A DNA stretch of 64,000 bases from Bacillus zhangzhouensis (lineage in GTDB: Bacteria; Bacillota; Bacilli; Bacillales; Bacillaceae), in assembly GCA_025809375.1 (NCBI GenBank), contig CP099514.1:2356001-2420000 (forward strand), in the 5' to 3' direction. Shown here one piece after another: positions 2,942-40,137 of the stretch (position 1 is the first letter of the stretch; the number at the start of each line of letters is the position of its first letter). Below the pieces are notes generated by a model. It saw nothing but the letters and a program-made list of their open reading frames with translations. It made no database searches and was not told the origin of the DNA. Both the position numbers and the translations under genes were made by a program.

Positions 2942-3010
2942 TTATCATTTGATAACAAAATGATACACCTCCATTAAATAGTTGTCAAATGATAATTGTT
3001 TTTTGATAAT
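2942..3010. promoter_or_regulatory. Divergent promoters and MarR operators
   Basis: Two related inverted repeats lie here: TTATCATTTGATAA (2942-2955) and TTGTCAAATGATAA (2982-2995), plus a half site TGATAA at 3004. The rightward promoter reads TTGTCA (2982-2987), 17 bp, GATAAT (3005-3010). The leftward promoter reads TTGACA (2988-2983), 17 bp, TATCAT (2965-2960). Both -35 boxes sit inside the second repeat, and the first repeat covers the leftward start region. One MarR dimer could therefore shut both genes. Binding by the adjacent MarR protein is inferred. Confidence 0.75.
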
Positions 3011-3042
3011 AATTTTGGTATGTTACGTAGGAGGTGATAAAC

Positions 3043-3489
3043 ATGAAACATCCCCATTTCTTCAAGGAATTCGTCGCATTTGCTTCTACTTTTTCAGAGC
3101 TGAAGCACGCCCTGATGAACAAAGTCAAACCAGCTAACCTAACAACCTTACAATACTTAATACTAGAGCAACTAGCTGTTAGCGAGCCGCTTACGCCAAG
3201 TGAAATTGCCGACTGTCAACACATGTCTCTTCCGAATGTCAGTAGAGAACTTAAAAAACTGCACGAGAAACAATTCATTGATAGAGAAGAAGACCGTGAT
3301 GACAAACGAAAACATGTCATTAAGCTGTCTGACAAAGGCCGTGCTTGTATGAATGAAGCCTTCCAACATATTGAAGGGGTGCTATTAGACAGCCTATCTT
3401 CCTCCGATATAGAACAAATGGATGATATCATTCAAGCTCTCCGCCTTTTAAATCAAACGATTTTCAAAAAAGAACCTAAAAAAGCATGA
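3043..3489 (+). CDS. MarR-family transcriptional regulator
   Basis: A 148-residue winged-helix regulator of the MarR family. The recognition region reads LTPSEIADCQHMSLPNVSREL, and the wing has the usual DRDDKRKHVIKLSDKG. No conserved redox cysteine pair typical of OhrR is obvious; cysteines occur near residues 58 and 108. The ATG at 3043 lies 8 bases after AGGAGG; the upstream GTG at 3034 overlaps that site and was rejected. Its divergent neighbour is a quinone reductase, so it is likely an autorepressor that responds to quinones or other electrophiles. Confidence 0.85.
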   Translation: MKHPHFFKEFVAFASTFSELKHALMNKVKPANLTTLQYLILEQLAVSEPLTPSEIADCQHMSLPNVSRELKKLHEKQFIDREEDRDDKRKHVIKLSDKGRACMNEAFQHIEGVLLDSLSSSDIEQMDDIIQALRLLNQTIFKKEPKKA

Positions 3490-5099: not shown

Positions 5100-6680
5100 T
5101 TATTGACCTTTTCGTGCAAGCTCTCTTTCTCTCAGCTCGACACGACGAATTTTCGCTGACGGTGTTTTTGGCAGTTCGTCAATGAATTCGATTTCTCTTG
5201 GGTATTTGTACGGTGCTGTTGTGTTTTTCACATGTGTTTGCAGCTCTTTGATCAGTTCATCACTTTGATCCGTTCCATCACGAAGGACGACGTATGCTTT
5301 CACGATTGATCCTCTGATTTCATCTGGGCTCGCCACAACTGCACATTCTTTCACTGCTGGATGCTTGATCAGTGCATCTTCTACTTCAAACGGTCCAATC
5401 GTATAGCCTGAGCTGACAATAATGTCATCTCTGCGGCTTTCAAACCAGAAGTACCCATCTTCATCTTTTTTCGCGCGGTCACCCGTAATAAAGTAATTGC
5501 CGCGGCTCTGCGCCTTTGTACGCTCTTCATCTTTGTAATATTCCTTAAATAGAGCCGGTGTTTCTAGATGGACCGCAATGTCACCAATTTCTCCAGGAGC
5601 GCAGACGTTTCCGTCCTCATCAATGATATCGACTTCGTTGCCAGGGGTTGGTTTTCCCATACTGCCTGGCTTGATGTCCATTCCTTTTAGCACCCCTACG
5701 AGCAGTGTGCTTTCAGTTTGGCCATAGCCGTCTCGTACGTCTATATCGAAATGCGTTTTAAAAGTATCAATGACTTCACGGTTCAGCGGCTCTCCTGCAG
5801 AAACAGCACTATGCAGCTTTGGCAGCTCATACTGACTCAAATCATCTACTTTTGCCATAAAGCGATATTCTGTCGGTGTGCAGCATAGGACATTGATTTC
5901 ATTTTTTTGAAGCAGCTCTAAATATGTATTTGGATTGAATTTCCCTCCGTACACAAAGCCTTCTGCCCCGCTTCCTAACACAGATAAAAGCGGGCTCCAC
6001 ACCCATTTTTGCCAGCCTGGTCCTGCTGTTGCCCATACTTTATCTCCTTCATTGATGGAGAGCCATGCTTTGGCAGCTGTGCGTAAATGTGCATACGCCC
6101 ATCCGTGTGTATGAACAACCCCTTTTGGGTTCCCTGTTGTACCTGATGTATAGGATAAAAACGCCATGTCTGTGCGTTTTGTATCTGCCAACTCAAGTTC
6201 GTTTGATTGCTCTTCCTTTTGCGCTAGAATGTTTGGCCAGCCATAGTCGTTTTCACCAATTGAGAATGTTTTAAAATCGTGTGGCTGTTTGATTCCGTCG
6301 AACGATTGAATGAATGAAGAATAAACGATCGCTCCCTTTGCTTCTGCGTGTTCAATTCGGTAATCTAAATCTTTCGCACGCAGCATTTCAGAACAAGGAA
6401 TCACGACCATTCCTGTTTTCAAAATCGCTATATAAATGCTGTATGCCTCGAGCATGCGGGGCACCATCACAATGATTTTATCGCCTTTTTTGAAGCCTGC
6501 ATTTAATAAAACATGTCCAATTTTATTTGCCTCGTCCACTAATGCTGCATATGTTACATGCGATTCGCAGCCATTGCCGTCCTGCCAGTGCAGGGCCATT
6601 TTCTCCTGGTCATGACTGAACGCTTCAATCTCACTGACTAAGTTATATTGTTCTGGTGCAATTAAGTCTTTTCTTTTCAT
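5100..6680 (-). CDS. ytcI: Acyl-CoA synthetase (AMP-forming), YtcI
   Basis: A 526-residue member of the ANL adenylating superfamily, close in length to B. subtilis YtcI. It forms an acyl-adenylate and then the CoA thioester. The phosphate loop YTSGTTGNPKGVVHTH lies around residues 175-190, the GYGQTE adenine motif near 318, the ITGD hinge motif near 400, and the C-terminal catalytic lysine is in PKTPSAKIRR near 510. The ATG follows AAAGGAG by 7 bases. Sequence resembles AcsA (23566-25290) but is shorter, and a medium-chain or fatty acid substrate is more likely than acetate. A palindrome upstream (6714-6725) may be an operator. Confidence 0.88.
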   Translation of the reverse strand: MKRKDLIAPEQYNLVSEIEAFSHDQEKMALHWQDGNGCESHVTYAALVDEANKIGHVLLNAGFKKGDKIIVMVPRMLEAYSIYIAILKTGMVVIPCSEMLRAKDLDYRIEHAEAKGAIVYSSFIQSFDGIKQPHDFKTFSIGENDYGWPNILAQKEEQSNELELADTKRTDMAFLSYTSGTTGNPKGVVHTHGWAYAHLRTAAKAWLSINEGDKVWATAGPGWQKWVWSPLLSVLGSGAEGFVYGGKFNPNTYLELLQKNEINVLCCTPTEYRFMAKVDDLSQYELPKLHSAVSAGEPLNREVIDTFKTHFDIDVRDGYGQTESTLLVGVLKGMDIKPGSMGKPTPGNEVDIIDEDGNVCAPGEIGDIAVHLETPALFKEYYKDEERTKAQSRGNYFITGDRAKKDEDGYFWFESRRDDIIVSSGYTIGPFEVEDALIKHPAVKECAVVASPDEIRGSIVKAYVVLRDGTDQSDELIKELQTHVKNTTAPYKYPREIEFIDELPKTPSAKIRRVELRERELARKGQ

Positions 6681-16323: not shown

Positions 16324-16821
16324 ATGTTTCATGTCGAAAAACAGTCTGGCGATCCTTCAAAAGACTATCAATTGCTTGTCAAACAGATAGAAGCCATGAC
16401 AGATGGTGAACCTGATCTGATTGCCAACTTGGCAAATGCAGCTGCGCTACTCTATCACTCACTTCCTGAAGTCAATTGGGCAGGTTTTTATTTAGCAAAG
16501 GGCAGCGAGCTCGTGCTTGGACCATTTAACGGACTGCCTGCATGTGTGCGCATTCCTTCTGGAAAAGGCGTTTGCGGTACAGCGTTTGCGACAGGTGAAG
16601 TGCAGCGTATCGCAGATGTCCATGCATTCCCTGGACATATTGCATGTGATGCCGCATCGCAATCTGAAATAGTCATTCCGCTCAAGGTTAATGGACAGAT
16701 CATTGGGGTGCTCGATATTGACAGCCCCGTGAAAAACCGCTTCAGTGAAGTCGATGAGACCTATCTTATTCAATTTACAGAAATTCTTCAACGGGCGTTA
16801 TCCGTCTCTACGGATGCGTAA
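16324..16821 (+). CDS. ytsP: Free methionine-(R)-sulfoxide reductase, GAF domain
   Basis: A 165-residue fRMsr that reduces free L-methionine-(R)-sulfoxide with thioredoxin. It is a single GAF domain with the three conserved redox cysteines at residues 74, 84 and 108 (PACVRI, KGVCGTA, HIACDA). The start is preceded by TAGGAG. The gene is divergent from refZ and is followed by a repeat element and then a terminator (17025-17050), so the transcript probably carries the repeat in its 3' end. Confidence 0.92.
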   Translation: MFHVEKQSGDPSKDYQLLVKQIEAMTDGEPDLIANLANAAALLYHSLPEVNWAGFYLAKGSELVLGPFNGLPACVRIPSGKGVCGTAFATGEVQRIADVHAFPGHIACDAASQSEIVIPLKVNGQIIGVLDIDSPVKNRFSEVDETYLIQFTEILQRALSVSTDA

Positions 16822-16830
16822 TCATGCAAA

Positions 16831-16850
16831 AAGCAGACACATTGTCTGCT
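16831..16850 (+). repeat. 20-bp direct repeat, left copy (terminator half)
   Basis: AAGCAGACACATTGTCTGCT is identical to 17025-17044. It can form the AGCAGACA/TGTCTGCT stem but lacks the T run, which follows only the right copy. The two copies flank the 174-base repeat element exactly. Confidence 0.85.
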
Positions 16851-17024
16851 CAGATTGTTGACAAAGGGCTAAAATGATGTTGATTTTAGCCCTTTGTCTT
16901 CTTTTCAGCGTGATAGAAAACCTTTGCAGCCTAGGAAGAACGAGCACTGCGCGGAGCGAATCTGATATTCGTGAGCACCAGCGCGCAGGACTGACACCGA
17001 ATGCGAGGGTTTGTCTACACGCTG
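16851..17024 (+). repeat. Intergenic stem-loop repeat, copy 1 (long form)
   Basis: Domain 1 is a perfect 15-bp stem GACAAAGGGCTAAAA / TTTTAGCCCTTTGTC (16860-16874, 16884-16898) with a 9-base loop, followed by TTCTTTTCAGCGTGATAG. Domain 2 is bounded by CAGCGTG (16906-16912) and CACGCTG (17018-17024), which pair together with the adjoining AAACCTTTGC / GCGAGGGTTT. Compared with copy 2 (39997-40106) it has about 60 extra bases inside domain 2, forming a further hairpin (CTGCGC...GCGCAG). It lies between ytsP and its terminator. Function unknown. Confidence 0.8.
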
Positions 17025-17050
17025 AAGCAGACACATTGTCTGCTTTTTTA
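17025..17050 (+). terminator. Terminator of ytsP (right copy of 20-bp repeat)
   Basis: The AGCAGACA / TGTCTGCT stem with a CAT loop is followed by six T residues. The left half of the presumed ancestral terminator region is now at 16831-16850. Confidence 0.8.
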
Positions 17051-18904: not shown

Positions 18905-19134
18905 CTCTTCATATATCCGGTATTTTTCGGCCAGCACCAAGTTCTTTCTTTTGAACCTCTTAAACGCTGTCTTCTAGTCTCCCTCTTCTGAAACTGTCAA
19001 AACTTTATCCTGTATAACTTAATTTTTTCGTTTTCCTTCATGCCTTTTATCACTCCAAATCAGAATTAATATTTATGAAAAAAGCTCCTAGATCTGGGAC
19101 TGACCCCCGTTTTTGAGACAGGGTCAAAACACCT

Positions 19135-19947
19135 TTATACAGCCAATTGCCGATAGTTTATCGGTGATTGGTTGTTTAGTTTAGTTTGAATACGAATGTT
19201 GTTATAATAATAAATGTAATCTTTGACAGTGCGTTCTACGATGGAAGTTGTAGTTCGGTCAATCCTGTTAAGATAGAACGTTTCAGACTTTAGCGTGGAA
19301 TGAAACGATTCGATGGAGGCATTATCAGCGGGTGTCCCTTTACGGGACATGCTCATGGTAATGCCTTTTATATGAACAGCTTTCTGATACTCGTAAGATG
19401 TATACACAGAACCTTGGTCGCTATGTAACACGCAGTTCTCAGGCAGTGCTGGGAGCTGATCAAGTGTGTTTAAGATAAAGTCTGTGTCCTGCTTATCACC
19501 AATCGTAAAAGCAATCACTTCTCCATTATATAAATCCAATATACTGGAAAGGTACAATGGTTTCTGTCCATAAGGCAAATATGTGATGTCCGTTACTAGT
19601 TTTTCAAGAGGGCGATCAGACTGAAAGTTTCGATCCAGTACATGACCGGCCACGGCATAGGGCTGCCCATTCTTCTTACGCTTTTTCATTTTAACCCGGC
19701 ACTGCCACTGGTTTTTCTGCATAATACGTTGAACAGTTTTATGGTTAATACGCATTCTCATTTTTAGTAGGGCTGTGATTTTTCGATATCCATATCGATA
19801 CTTGTGCTCTCGGCACAACGTGCCGATTTGTTTCTCTAGCTGTCTTTTAGAATGATTCTGAGTCCGATCCTTTTTCCATCTATAGTACGAACTACGTGAG
19901 ATGCCTAAATGGACACAAATGTCCTGTACTGTCATCGTTTTGCACAA
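19135..19947 (-). CDS. IS3-family transposase OrfB (DDE integrase domain)
   Basis: A 270-residue catalytic half of the transposase with an rve integrase core. The DDE triad is visible: Asp in KLVTDITYLPYG near residue 119, Asp in VLHSDQGSVYTS near residue 178, and Glu in NASIESFHSTLK near residue 213. The frame upstream of its first ATG is open back through the slippery site at 20004-20010. A -1 ribosomal shift from orfA would thus yield the OrfAB fusion used for transposition. Confidence 0.93.
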   Translation of the reverse strand: MCKTMTVQDICVHLGISRSSYYRWKKDRTQNHSKRQLEKQIGTLCREHKYRYGYRKITALLKMRMRINHKTVQRIMQKNQWQCRVKMKKRKKNGQPYAVAGHVLDRNFQSDRPLEKLVTDITYLPYGQKPLYLSSILDLYNGEVIAFTIGDKQDTDFILNTLDQLPALPENCVLHSDQGSVYTSYEYQKAVHIKGITMSMSRKGTPADNASIESFHSTLKSETFYLNRIDRTTTSIVERTVKDYIYYYNNIRIQTKLNNQSPINYRQLAV

Positions 19948-19952
19948 TTCTT

Positions 19953-20285
19953 CTACCAGTTTGATTGATGTTTCCTTATCAACTTCCTTTCCAATTCGTT
20001 GTACTTTTTTAAAACTTCATTCTGTTGACTCAGATAGCGATTTTCTGCCTGTAGTCTCTCTAATTCGGAAGAGTACTCGGGACCCTTTCCATAGGTATAT
20101 TGTTTTCCAACAGGCTGTTCGAACCGGTGTGTATCCCCAGCCTTATGCCACCTCACCCATGTCTGAACCTGCGTCTTATTCTTGATATTCAATTCCTCCA
20201 TGATCTCTTTCATAGATACGCCTGCCAATCTCATGTCTACAGCCTTCTGTTTGACTTCAATCGGATAACTTATTCTTGTCCCCAT
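19953..20285 (-). CDS. IS3-family OrfA (helix-turn-helix)
   Basis: A 110-residue DNA-binding half of the transposase, starting MGTRISYPIEVKQKAVDMRL at the ATG at 20285, which follows GGAGGTG. The N-terminal helix-turn-helix (about residues 10-55, MKEIMEELNIKNKTQVQTW) recognises the inverted repeats. A leucine-zipper-like segment (LERLQAENRYLSQQNEVLKK) follows and would drive dimerisation. Confidence 0.9.
   Translation of the reverse strand: MGTRISYPIEVKQKAVDMRLAGVSMKEIMEELNIKNKTQVQTWVRWHKAGDTHRFEQPVGKQYTYGKGPEYSSELERLQAENRYLSQQNEVLKKYNELERKLIRKHQSNW
20004..20010 (-). other. Programmed -1 frameshift site of the IS
   Basis: On the minus strand the heptamer A-AAA-AAG lies near the end of orfA. 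Slipping back one base gives an open path into orfB (KKVQRIGKEVDKE...CKTMTVQD), as expected for IS3 elements. Confidence 0.7.
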
Positions 20286-20379
20286 GAAAAAACACCTCCA
20301 TGTTTTATTTCGGATCACAACGATCCGTTTTCAAACTTGAAGGTGTTTTTTATTAGTCTCATCTTATGGGGTCAGTCCC

Positions 20380-20596
20380 ATCTCTTTCTAGGAGCTTTCA
20401 AACTTTTATTATTAACTGTCCATTTTGTGATAAGCTGCTCTGTTGTCATAACAGTCGCAAATTCATCATGCAGCGTTGCAAGTGAGAGCCGGTGGATCGT
20501 TTCTAGGTCAAAATATGTACCGTTTTGATCTATTAGTCCAAAGACAGTTGTTGCATCTGAGATCAGATACGTATCAAACCCAAGATTTCCGCTCAT
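20380..20596 (-). pseudogene. Isochorismatase-like hydrolase, C-terminal fragment
   Basis: About 70 residues match the C-terminal third of cysteine hydrolases of the isochorismatase/nicotinamidase fold. The piece begins at the conserved RMSGNLGFDTYLISDAT, just after the position of the catalytic cysteine, and continues through FDLETIHRLSLATLHDEFATV. A TGA occurs four codons before the first methionine and no N-terminal part follows in any frame, so the gene is 5'-truncated. Its 3' end now runs into the IS, where the new stop is supplied by the inverted repeat. Not expected to be functional. Confidence 0.75.
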
Positions 20597-23251: not shown

Positions 23252-23500
23252 CATAAAAAACGCCCCTTCGAATGAACGAAGGGACGATATATATCGCGGT
23301 ACCACCCTGCTTAAAAGACAAAAATTTTGTCTTTTCACTTACATTGATAACGGACAGTTCCGTTCTTTCACTAATCAGGGCATGCTCCTTTTCGTAAAAG
23401 CGGTTCGTGAGGGTAATTCGAATATCTCTTTGTACTGACTCACACCAGCCGTCAGCTCTCTTCAACAGGGAAAGATTATTCTACTGAATCTCAGTCAAAA
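23252..23500 (-). promoter_or_regulatory. T-box riboswitch of tyrS
   Basis: The invariant T-box AGCAGGGTGGTACCGCG is on the minus strand at 23311-23295, followed by the leader terminator stem CGTCCCTTCG / CGAAGGGGCG with a T run (23286-23255). Upstream are the AGAGAG and GCTGGTGTGAGTC elements of stem I. The specifier TAC (Tyr) is at 23415-23413 in the context GAATTACCC, like the GAATTAC of B. subtilis tyrS. Uncharged tRNA-Tyr would favour the antiterminator and switch tyrS on. The exact 5' end is estimated. Confidence 0.93.
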
Positions 23501-23565
23501 CCTTTACATATTCAACTAATGTCATTTTTAACATACTTTTGATATCAAGTCAACTGAGGGAAAAA

Positions 23566-32041: not shown

Positions 32042-32162
32042 ATCGCCTAGAATGACCAATTGAATAATAATTCTACACTTATTCGCTAATTCCTGTCCAC
32101 AGCGAACGAAAAAAAGCGGCACATGTTGACACATTTAGCCCTTTTGTCACATTTTATTCAAA

Positions 32163-32193
32163 ATAAAAAAAGTGCCGTTCAACATGGCACTTT
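32163..32193 (-). terminator. Terminator of murC
   Basis: AAAGTGCC / GGCACTTT stem (32166-32193) with seven T residues on the minus strand, downstream of repeat copy 3. Confidence 0.85.
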
Positions 32194-32201
32194 AGATGAT
32201 G

Positions 32202-32247
32202 GACAAAAGGCTAAAATGTTCTTTTTAGCCTTTTGTCTTCTTTTCAG
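32202..32247 (+). repeat. Intergenic stem-loop repeat, copy 3 (short form)
   Basis: Domain 1 only: a perfect 15-bp stem GACAAAAGGCTAAAA / TTTTAGCCTTTTGTC (32202-32216, 32223-32237) with a 6-base loop, followed by TTCTTTTCAGC, identical to copies 1 and 2. Relative to copy 1, GGGC/GCCC has become AGGC/GCCT on both arms, a compensatory change. It sits between the murC stop and the murC terminator, in the opposite orientation to the gene. Confidence 0.75.
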
Positions 32248-32250
32248 CAT

Positions 32251-33549
32251 TTATACAGCGACTTTTTCATAAGCACGCAAATATTTTTGAATGTCTCCTG
32301 CTCCCATAAAGATCAGAATCGCATCTTCGTGCGCTTTCAGCACAGATGTATCTTCTTCCTCAATCAATTGGGCCTGTGGGATTTTTTCTTGTAAATCTTC
32401 AATGCTCAGCTTCCCAATGTTTTCACGGGCTGAACCGAAAATATCACAAAGATAGATATAATCGGCTTTCTTTAGACTGTCAGCAAATTCACTTAAGAAT
32501 TGCTGTGTACGTGTAAACGTATGCGGCTGGAAGACAGCCACAATATCACGGTCCGGATATTTTTGGCGAGCTGCTTCAATCGTGACTTCAATTTCAGTTG
32601 GGTGATGTGCATAATCGTCAATTAAGACCTGCTCACCGACCACTTTTTCATTAAAGCGTCGTTTCACACCGCCAAATGTCCTTAATGCCCCTTTGATAAG
32701 CTCTACATCAATGGACTCATAGTGACATAATGCAATGACAGCTAACGAGTTGAGGACATTATGATTTCCGTAGGCAGGAATGTAGAATGTATCATAAAAC
32801 GTATTGCGTACAAATACATCAAATGTAGTGCCTTCCGTATTTTTCACAACATTGCGAGCTTGGAAATCATTTTCTTCGTTGAAACCGTAGTACACAACAG
32901 GTACCTTCGCTTGAATCTTTGGCAGATGCTCATCATCACCACAAGCAATAATCGCTTTTTTCACTTGAAGCGCCATGTTTTGAAACGCATCAAACACGTC
33001 ATCAATATCCGAGAAATAATCCGGGTGATCAAAATCAATATTGGTCATGATCGCATAATCTGGGTGGTAGCTGAGGAAGTGTCTTCGGTATTCGCATGCC
33101 TCAAACACAAAATACTCGCTGTTTTCTTTCCCCATTCCAGATCCATCACCGATTAAGTACGAAGTGGGTTTTGCTGCCTGCATGACGTGAGCAAGCAGTC
33201 CTGTTGTCGATGTTTTGCCATGAGCACCAGTAATCGCAACGTTTGTGAATGAATTCATGTATTCCCCAAGGAATTTATGGTAGCGAATGACAGGAATTCC
33301 TTCAGAAAGGGCACGTTCAATCTCAGGGTGTGTATCAGGAAATGCATTTCCTGCAATGACCGTCATCCCTGGCTGAATATTATCTGGGTCAAATGGAAGG
33401 ATTTTAATATTTCGTTCTTCTAATGCTTTTTGTGTAAAGATATGTTTTTCGATATCCGATCCTTGGACAGTATACCCAGTATCATGAAGAATTTGGGCCA
33501 GTGGACTCATACCTGTCCCTTTTATTCCAACAAAATGATAAACAGTCAT
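32251..33549 (-). CDS. murC: UDP-N-acetylmuramate-L-alanine ligase
   Basis: A 432-residue Mur ligase that adds the first alanine of the peptidoglycan stem peptide in the cytoplasm. The UDP-binding start [15 protein letters not shown], the ATP loop [12 protein letters not shown] near residue 105 and [10 protein letters not shown] near residue 305 are present. Like other bacilli it lies outside the dcw cluster. It ends in an unusual 3' region with repeat copy 3 between the stop codon and the terminator. Confidence 0.97.
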
Positions 33550-39350: not shown

Positions 39351-39549
39351 CAACGTCGTCTTCCTGCTTTCTCATAGGAAAGACGACGAGGCCTGTCTTT
39401 CCCATTATATGTAGTATTCTTACGATGAAAAATATCTCTACCATGAATATCATAATCATATTTTTTTTGCTTTATCAAGCACTTCTTGTGTAACATGAAA
39501 AGAAACAGGACAAACCTTGACTAAGTTTGTACAAAAGGAGGAGAGCGTT

Positions 39550-39996
39550 ATGCAATTAACTGTCTATTTAGCTGGAGAAATTCATAGCCAGTGGCGTGAT
39601 GAAATCAAGGAGAAAAGCCAATCTTTGAAGCTGCCGGTGACATTTGTTGGTCCAATGGAGAATCATGACCGATCAGATAACATCGGTGAGGATATTTTAG
39701 GTGAGCAGCCGAATGCCATGTTCAAAGATGATGCAGCTTCTGATTTGAACAATTTTCGTACTGAAATTTTATTAAACAAAGCAGATGTCGTCATTGCGCG
39801 GTTTGGTGAGAAATATAAACAGTGGAACACAGCCATGGATGCATCTGCTGCGATTGTAAAAGGAAAACCTCTTATTTTAATCCGCCCAAAAGAGCTGCAC
39901 CATCCGTTAAAAGAACTCTCAAACAGAGCAAATATCACTGTGGAAACGGTGAACCAAGCGATCAAGGCGTTATCTTATGTGTTTGAACAGCAATAA
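39550..39996 (+). CDS. ytoQ: YtoQ family protein
   Basis: A 148-residue protein related to nucleoside 2-deoxyribosyltransferase-like folds (YtoQ family). MQLTVYLAGEIHSQWRDEI opens it, FVGPMENHDRSDNIGEDILG is near residue 35 and the C-terminal NITVETVNQAIKALSYVFE is conserved with B. subtilis. ATG at 39550 follows AAGGAGGAG; the 39517 extension was rejected. The substrate is unknown. Repeat copy 2 begins at the base after its stop codon. Confidence 0.9.
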   Translation: MQLTVYLAGEIHSQWRDEIKEKSQSLKLPVTFVGPMENHDRSDNIGEDILGEQPNAMFKDDAASDLNNFRTEILLNKADVVIARFGEKYKQWNTAMDASAAIVKGKPLILIRPKELHHPLKELSNRANITVETVNQAIKALSYVFEQQ

Positions 39997-40106
39997 GAAA
40001 AAGGGCTAAAATGATGTTGATTTTAGCCTTTTGTCTTCTTTTCAGCGTGATAGAAAACCTTTGCAGCAAGACCTGACACCGAATGCGAGGGTTTATCTAC
40101 ACGCTG
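39997..40106 (+). repeat. Intergenic stem-loop repeat, copy 2 (medium form)
   Basis: Domain 1 has stem arms GAAAAAGGGCTAAAA (39997-40011) and TTTTAGCCTTTTGTC (40021-40035) with the same 9-base loop TGATGTTGA as copy 1, then TTCTTTTCAGCGTGATAGAA. Domain 2 runs to CACGCTG (40100-40106) with CTGACACCGAATGCGAGGG identical to copy 1, but lacks the 60-base inner hairpin. It starts directly after the ytoQ stop and is followed by a separate terminator. Confidence 0.8.
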
Positions 40107-40137
40107 GGGCTGCTCTCATTGAAGAGGCAGCCTTTTT
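40107..40137 (+). terminator. Terminator of ytoQ
   Basis: GGCTGCTCT / AGAGGCAGCC stem (imperfect) with T5 tail, downstream of repeat copy 2. Confidence 0.75.

What the first reader, a model, noticed from the sequence alone, without database searches (positions are those of the whole stretch)
16851..17024. Family of structured intergenic repeats with compensatory changes
Three loci (16851-17024, 32202-32247, 39997-40106) share a 15-bp stem-loop followed by TTCTTTTCAGC. The two longer copies also share a second paired domain bounded by CAGCGTG and CACGCTG. Between copies 1 and 3 the stem changes GGGC/GCCC to AGGC/GCCT on both arms, so pairing is kept while sequence changes. All three lie after a stop codon and before that gene's own terminator. 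This looks like a small mobile or regulatory RNA-forming element, not just a terminator, because a separate terminator is always present.
Basis: seen in the sequence. Interest (0 to 1): 0.75.

Follow-up and report, generated by a model that had tools for sequence, protein, structure and literature searches.

The report
Terminator-invading mini-transposon family in Bacillus
The repeats are copies of a small non-coding mobile DNA element that jumps into the hairpin 'stop signs' at the ends of bacterial genes and leaves a copy of the hairpin on both of its sides, so that the gene ends probably keep working; it looks like a stripped-down passenger of a known insertion-sequence family (IS1182).

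Summary
Copy 1 (16851-17024) is one of 40 places found in its own genome; 38 of 44 genus genomes match. It is a ~175-bp MITE-like element, CAG...CTG, with imperfect 15-bp inverted ends, lying inside intrinsic terminators. In 91 of 119 copies with both ends (80 of 103 after merging similar sites), it is flanked by a direct repeat of 12-30 bp that is the terminator hairpin. Hairpin and repeat centres agree within 0.5 nt in 83 of 91. Copy 1's site is empty in all 29 relatives read. IS1182-family insertion sequences in the same genomes have similar ends (up to 14/15); 25 of 29 copies have flanking repeats of 14-29 bp, mostly whole hairpins. Best explanation: a non-autonomous element moved by IS1182 transposase; the mover is inferred. 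The left hairpin covaries, but the reported compensatory change is between copies 1 and 2, not 1 and 3. Orientation follows the replichore in 33-35 of 43 copies. Hairpin targeting by IS1182 members is known; whole-hairpin duplication by them, this MITE family and the orientation bias I did not find described.

The parts
16851..17024 (+). Copy 1: complete MITE, CAG...CTG, 174 bp
   Evidence: ends fixed by comparison with empty sites
16831..16850 (+). Left target duplication AAGCAGACACATTGTCTGCT (host terminator hairpin, A-tract side)
17025..17044 (+). Right target duplication, identical 20 bp, followed by the T-tract
   Evidence: terminator-like hit 17024-17046
16860..16898 (+). Left subterminal hairpin of the MITE with T-rich tail TTCTTTT: terminator-like; covaries across copies
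16324..16821 (+). Upstream 165-aa ORF (function from recall only: free-Met-R-sulfoxide reductase/GAF type) whose terminator was hit; matched in 44 of 44 genus genomes
32194..32248 (+). Copy 2: left-end remnant (hairpin AGGC/GCCT plus TCTTCTTTTCAGC), 2 nt from the stop codon of the minus-strand ORF 32251-33549
32170..32192 (.). Terminator-like hairpin AAGTGCC...GGCACTT beside copy 2
   Evidence: read by eye
39997..40106 (+). Copy 3: MITE lacking its outermost left end and much of the centre
40108..40132 (+). Terminator hairpin GGCTGC...GCAGCC after the ORF 39517-39996; also hit in other genomes

Best explanation
The repeats are a MITE: a short, protein-less transposon with CAG...CTG ends, most likely moved by an IS1182-family transposase acting in trans. 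The two element ends are joined to the two sides of an intrinsic-terminator palindrome, one strand at each base of the hairpin, and repair leaves a full copy of the hairpin on either side. The hairpin-length duplications are shown by the sequences; the enzyme's role is inferred. Because the hairpin is duplicated, the right copy keeps the T-tract for rightward transcripts and the left copy keeps the A-tract, which is a T-tract for leftward ones. The neighbouring genes should therefore keep a working terminator and merely gain a longer 3' UTR (inferred). The simplest physical reason why the duplication is centred on the palindrome and varies with it is attack on an extruded hairpin or cruciform, where the two strand sites lie next to each other (inferred, not shown).
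For: Duplications: 40 of 56 testable copies exceed the 1% level of mismatched flank pairs. In a larger, partly overlapping set 91 of 119 do, 12-30 bp, hairpin centre within 0.5 nt of the repeat centre in 83 of 91; after merging similar sites 80 of 103, 73 of 80 centred. With the hairpin chosen without reference to the repeat ends, the G-C core lies inside the repeat with margins of 0-5 nt in 79 of 91, the margins are equal in 65 of 91, and length follows core length (Spearman 0.57, Pearson 0.32). Pairing runs 6 or more bases inward from the repeat ends in 57%, against 0.7% of random flank windows. Empty site: 29 of 29 other genomes read lack copy 1. At copy 3's terminator 5 of 29 other genomes give a match, L115 and L122 in opposite orientations, L117 in tandem. 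Partner: IS1182 transposase (NF033551, 304 bits, cutoff 270); nine open copies plus one with a split frame in the own genome. IS-B left end matches the MITE ends at 14 and 13 of 15. 25 of 29 IS copies with both ends have repeats of 14-29 bp, 22 of them complete centred hairpins. MITE and IS share a terminator in L142 and L183; IS-A sits in a MITE hairpin in L184.
Against: No transposition was observed. 28 of 119 copies show no duplication, and at copy 3's terminator L115 and L122 show the hairpin on one side only. Presence does not track the IS: 12 of 13 genomes with an IS1182 match above the cutoff carry the MITE, but so do 26 of the 31 others, and G009 has an intact IS1182 but no MITE match. 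MITE-rich G004 has no IS1182 match, and G001, G024 and G025 only weak fragments. IS-B, closest in its ends, is broken in the own genome. The IS-A ends match MITE ends at only 11-13 of 15. Apart from the ends, MITE and IS share almost no sequence. Own-genome remnants keep the left end more often than the right.
Confidence: 0.85

Rival explanations
1. Structured 3'-UTR regulatory RNA family maintained by selection, spread by duplication rather than transposition.
For: Pairs covary: 98.3% of cells paired against a shuffle maximum of 93.7%; 7 pairs with double changes against a shuffle maximum of 6. Copy 1 with its flanks folds with z=-8.6. Copies lie at gene 3' ends.
Against: Precise ends, hairpin duplications, empty sites, both orientations at one terminator, location tied to the terminator. 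No Rfam match here.
Confidence: 0.05
2. Same mobile element, but moved by a different enzyme, for example an IS30-type transposase like IS1630, which also duplicates inverted repeats, or an unknown one.
For: IS1630 copies are flanked by 16-, 23-, 25- and 26-bp duplications (PMC3317919 passage). MITE presence does not track IS1182 presence.
Against: IS30 family (NF033563) found in 0 of 44 genus genomes; IS1182 members with similar ends and the same target rule are present. Other transposase families were not searched.
Confidence: 0.08
3. Tandem terminators or gene conversion produced the two hairpins; the insert is not a transposon.
For: 28 of 119 copies have no matching flanks, and L002 has two different terminators on its two sides.
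Against: Empty orthologous sites have one hairpin, and the two hairpins match each other site by site, not between sites.
Confidence: 0.02

Closest known systems
IS1182-family insertion sequences (ISBpu1 of B. pumilus; IS1272 and TnSha1 of staphylococci)
   Same: IS1182 transposase; hairpins, among them terminators, targeted with no primary sequence rule; several independent insertions in one terminator, in both orientations (PMC4923244 passages). ISBpu1 is named as an IS1182-like element of B. pumilus (PMC7820076 passage); its sequence was not compared.
   Different: IS1272/TnSha1 delete part of the hairpin and make no duplication (PMC4923244 passages; PMC5678879 abstract). Here the hairpin is duplicated. 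The MITE has no gene. Orientation follows the replichore here, whereas PMC4923244 infers no orientation bias.
IS1630 (IS30 type, Mycoplasma fermentans)
   Same: Targets inverted repeats and duplicates them with variable length (title of the 1999 paper seen in a reference list; duplications of 16-26 bp, PMC3317919 passage).
   Different: Different transposase family, not found in the 44 genus genomes.
Other structured intergenic repeats (bcr1 of the B. cereus group, RUP/BOX, REP)
   Same: Short, palindromic, intergenic, multicopy.
   Different: No sequence relation was tested. The part of PMC2267715's family table that I saw lists no B. subtilis family. From recall only: a 190-bp B. subtilis repeat of the 1997 genome paper may be related; not tested.

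Membership tests
MITE (non-autonomous DNA transposon) | Short, no coding capacity, terminal inverted repeats | tested here: met
   96 of 119 are 174-177 bp; ends 12/15 alike
MITE (non-autonomous DNA transposon) | Target-site duplication and empty sites | tested here: met
   91 of 119, 80 of 103 merged sites; copy 1's site empty in 29 of 29 read
MITE (non-autonomous DNA transposon) | Related autonomous element with the same ends | tested here: met
   IS-A and IS-B, IS1182 family; ends 11-14 of 15 alike, best 14
IS1182-derived MITE | Mobilised by the IS1182 transposase | not testable with these tools
   Only similar ends and the same target rule are shown
IS1182-derived MITE | Presence tracks the IS across genomes | tested here: inconclusive
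   MITE in 12 of 13 genomes with an IS above cutoff and in 26 of 31 without
IS1182-derived MITE | Internal sequence derived from an IS by deletion | tested here: not met
   Only the ends align with IS-A/IS-B; deleted IS-B relatives exist in L165, L166
IS1272-type inverted-repeat replacement | Hairpin partly deleted, no duplication | tested here: not met
   Hairpin duplicated in 91 of 119 MITEs and 25 of 29 ISs
IS30/IS1630 | IS30-family transposase in the genome | tested here: not met
   0 of 44 genomes
Known Rfam RNA family | Match above gathering score | tested here: not met
   Only a T-box elsewhere in the window
REP/RAYT system | Y1/RAYT transposase | not tested
   Not searched

The most novel reading that the evidence does not exclude
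The transposase recognises the DNA shape of an extruded terminator hairpin at the replication fork, not a sequence. It attacks both strands at the base of the palindrome, so that the target duplication is the hairpin itself, and the fork fixes the element's orientation. Insertion is thereby self-neutralising: it duplicates the terminator that it invades. This would be a structure-guided, replication-coupled transposition pathway that lets a MITE fill a genome without breaking genes or terminators.
Probability: 0.35. Interest if true: 0.75.

Novelty: new variant of a known kind. Interest (0 to 1): 0.55.

Why it matters
It gives about a hundred readable insertions in which the duplication is centred on a hairpin and varies with it. 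That makes the question 'does a DDE transposase read DNA secondary structure in the cell?' directly testable. It also explains a large class of 3'-UTR repeats in relatives of Bacillus pumilus, licheniformis and subtilis that could otherwise be mistaken for regulatory RNAs, and it suggests terminators as safe havens for mobile DNA.

Tried and rejected
Regulatory RNA family as the main reading: set aside because of duplications, empty sites and both orientations at one terminator. IS30/IS1630-type mover: family found in 0 of 44 genomes; other transposase families were not searched. Composite transposons formed by two nearby MITE copies (L043, L059): the ORFs between them look like ordinary host genes by eye; no family search was run on them. 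The IS3-family element in the window (orfB 19135-19947 minus, PF00665/HTH_21): its ends are TGGGACTGACCCC, unlike the MITE. L168 as an IS with one MITE end: it proved to be a longer MITE and, downstream, a deleted IS-B-type element. Phage carriage: no match in phage records. Plasmid hits (4 records) include Stutzerimonas and Klebsiella records, which I suspect are Bacillus sequence mixed in; not followed. Consensus folding of the centre: the alignment supports only the left hairpin and a short stem at the right end, although copy 1 alone folds the centre.

Limits and corrections. Orientation in the own genome is 33, 34 or 35 of 43 with the terminus set at 1.50, 1.64 or 1.75 Mb; two fragments inside an IS3 element were left out. 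GC skew over the fetched loci turns between the 1.25- and 1.5-Mb bins. Convergent sites alone: 18 of 21. Codirectional: 15 of 21 (leading-strand genes 12 of 17, lagging-strand genes 3 of 4), so replication and transcription are not separated. Four other genomes: 49 of 60, from the best-scoring rows only, assuming numbering from the origin. G022, also one contig, was dropped because its numbering differs. Insertions shared by descent are not removed there, so these p-values are too small. The r=0.65 between repeat length and hairpin core was measured inside the repeat with the centre held within half a base, so it is partly built in; the equal margins of the IS copies in the same call rest on the same measure. 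The unconstrained test is (Pearson 0.32, Spearman 0.57). Repeat detection allowed 0-2 nt of jitter at each end. The cut at 14 bp for IS copies was set after seeing them: one further copy has 10 bp, one a weak match, two none. Site merging is by shared flank words. One search stopped with an error after its first part, whose results are used; redid the rest. The covariation control does not correct for relatedness. The odds for the best explanation went from 0.87 to 0.85 after counting that MITE presence does not track the IS.

Full report
What was checked. Copy 1 is complete and its reported coordinates, 16851-17024, are exactly the ends of the element. Copy 2 keeps only the left-end hairpin; copy 3 lacks the outermost left end and much of the centre. 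The compensatory change reported between copies 1 and 3 is in fact between copies 1 and 2; copy 3 has a G.U pair. Rfam has no family here; the only gathering-level match in the window is a T-box at 23277-23507.

Copy number and range. A search of the own genome (3.28 Mb, one contig) with 172 bp around copy 1 lists 81 matches at 40 places; the other rows are split pieces or the palindrome matching itself. Leaving out two identical fragments inside an IS3-type element (L066, L067) and adding five weaker places, I used 43 for orientation. 38 of 44 genus genomes match. No phage record matches.

Anatomy. The element reads CAGATTGTTGACAAA ... TTTGTCTACACGCTG; 96 of 119 copies are 174-177 bp, and several begin TAG. 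The ends are an imperfect 15-bp inverted repeat (12 of 15). Just inside the left end lies a long hairpin with a T-rich tail that scores as terminator-like. Across 67 copies thinned to under 95% identity (from 119), 16 consensus pairs, 12 of them in this hairpin, are 98.3% paired (shuffles mean 92.6%, maximum 93.7%). Seven pairs show double changes (shuffle maximum 6), with 50 double-change cells (shuffle maximum 15). Relatedness is not controlled, so this shows a maintained palindrome, not a particular function. Copy 1 with flanks folds with z=-8.6.

Where it inserts. Of 44 own-genome copies classed by a crude reading-frame caller, 20 lie between convergent genes, 22 between genes in one direction and 2 between divergent ones. 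No enclosing frame was called for any of them, although two lie in a broken IS3 orfB. The flanks show the rule: on the left an A-tract and a hairpin, then the element, then the same hairpin again and a T-tract. With mismatched left/right pairs as control, 40 of 56 testable copies exceed the 1% level. In the enlarged set, which includes many of these, 91 of 119 do; 22 of the 119 are from the own genome and 70 from named records. Merging sites with similar flanks leaves 103, of which 80 are positive. The duplications are 12-30 bp, median 24. The hairpin centre lies within 0.5 nt of the centre of the duplication in 83 of 91, or 73 of 80 merged sites. With the hairpin chosen without reference to the repeat ends, its G-C core lies inside the repeat with margins of 0-5 nt in 79 of 91, and the margins are equal in 65 of 91. 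Repeat length follows core length (Spearman 0.57, p=5e-9; Pearson 0.32, p=0.002). The outermost bases are complementary in 82 of 91. So the palindrome, rather than one fixed stagger, sets the place and, to a good part, the length.

Empty and occupied sites. The gene before copy 1 matches in 44 of 44 genus genomes. In the 29 others whose downstream DNA was held, the element is absent, and the close relatives have a single hairpin of the type GCAGGCACATTGTCTGC. Hence the doubled AAGCAGACACATTGTCTGCT around copy 1 is a target duplication, and the insertion is young. At copy 3's terminator, 5 of 29 other genomes give a match: L115 in one orientation, L122 in the other, L117 a tandem with repeated hairpins, L125, and a weak right-end piece in L113; L120 shows the first bases before its contig ends. 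L115 and L122 show the hairpin on one side only, so not every insertion keeps both copies.

The partner. A pattern for the inverted repeat in the own genome revealed pairs of ends about 1.55 kb apart (its list was cut). They bound an IS1182-family insertion sequence (NF033551, 304 bits, cutoff 270), here IS-A: nine open copies in the own genome and one (L068) whose frame is split. A second type, IS-B (1505 bp, 478-aa frame), is intact in G021 and G022 and broken in the own genome. IS-B's left end matches the MITE right end at 14 of 15 and the left end at 13; the other IS ends match at 11-13. Of 29 IS copies with both ends, 25 have duplications of 14-29 bp; in 22 of these it is a complete hairpin with equal margins of 1-3 bp, by a measure that holds the centre within half a base. 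At L142 MITE and IS-A share one terminator with three hairpin copies; at L183 an IS-A and a MITE flank one hairpin; at L184 an IS-A sits in the MITE's own left hairpin. The IS-A ends and the left end of IS-B begin with hairpins followed by T-rich stretches, the same design as the MITE left end.

Against a simple partnership. IS1182 is detected in 37 of 44 genomes (13 above the cutoff). The MITE is in 12 of these 13 and in 26 of the other 31, so presence does not track an intact IS; G004 is MITE-rich without any match. The MITE centre is not visibly IS-derived. An IS30-type mover was not found (0 of 44); other families were not searched.

Orientation. In the own genome 33-35 of 43 copies point the same way relative to the replichore, depending on where the terminus is set (Fisher p 7e-4 to 8e-5; skew). 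Convergent sites alone give 18 of 21 (p=0.0015). In four other genomes, from the best listed rows only, 49 of 60 agree (nominal p=8e-7; shared insertions not removed, G022 dropped). The fork, or the stronger transcription of leading-strand genes, may fix orientation; the data do not separate them.

How it most likely works. Shown: precise ends, duplications centred on the palindrome, empty sites, IS elements with similar ends and the same rule. Inferred: IS1182 transposase moves the MITE; it attacks both strands at the base of an extruded terminator hairpin; repair duplicates the hairpin. Read from the sequence, the T-tract stays next to one hairpin copy and the A-tract next to the other, so termination in both directions should survive.

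What is known. Furi et al. 2016 (PMC4923244, passages) report that IS1272 and TnSha1, of the IS1182 family, target hairpins, among them terminators, with partial deletion and no duplication; they cite a 2015 review that some IS1182 members target palindromes, and infer no orientation bias. Wan et al. 2017 (PMC5678879, abstract) describe inverted-repeat replacement without duplications. IS1630, IS30-type, duplicates inverted repeats (PMC3317919 passages; the 1999 paper was not held). ISBpu1 is named as IS1182-like in B. pumilus (PMC7820076 passage). In the listings of my ten searches I saw no description of this MITE family, but four of those listings were cut, the library lacks most subscription papers, and ISfinder was not available.

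Verdict. A new MITE family with a likely IS1182 partner: a variant of a known kind, notable for duplicating whole terminator hairpins and for its replichore-linked polarity. The regulatory-RNA reading is not needed.

Noticed in passing
window 23277-23507 (-): T-box leader, 140 bits, the only Rfam gathering-level match in the window.
   Followed up: no
window about 19070-20385: IS3-family element (orfB 19135-19947 minus; rve, HTH_21) with ends TGGGACTGACCCC / GGGGTCAGTCCCA.
   Followed up: partly
window about 32134-32150: ATTTAGCCCTTTTGTCA near copy 2 resembles the right arm of the MITE left hairpin; perhaps another remnant (by eye).
   Followed up: no
L066 ~3001-3062 and L067 ~5281-5342 (G000 2666055 and 223394): Two identical sites where a MITE left-end fragment lies inside the orfB of this IS3 type.
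   Followed up: partly
L117: Tandem MITE insertions in one terminator with repeated hairpin copies.
   Followed up: no
L170 (G021 about 1480900-1483940): IS-A and IS-B abut end to end, with one terminator hairpin on both outer sides of the pair.
   Followed up: no
L165, L166 (G017, G010): About 0.53-kb internally deleted IS-B relatives with both ends kept: possible step from IS to MITE.
   Followed up: partly
own-genome remnants L068, L069, L070, L076, window copy 2: Left-end-only remnants are common; no right-end-only one was seen in the BLAST list: an unexplained asymmetry.
   Followed up: no
plasmid records NZ_CP078511.1, NZ_CP078512.1, CP063894.1: The MITE appears in records labelled Stutzerimonas and Klebsiella plasmids; perhaps Bacillus DNA mixed into the assemblies.
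   Followed up: no
G000 804958, 1528760, 2866742, 3038826: Further exact left-end matches listed that were not among the copies studied.
   Followed up: no
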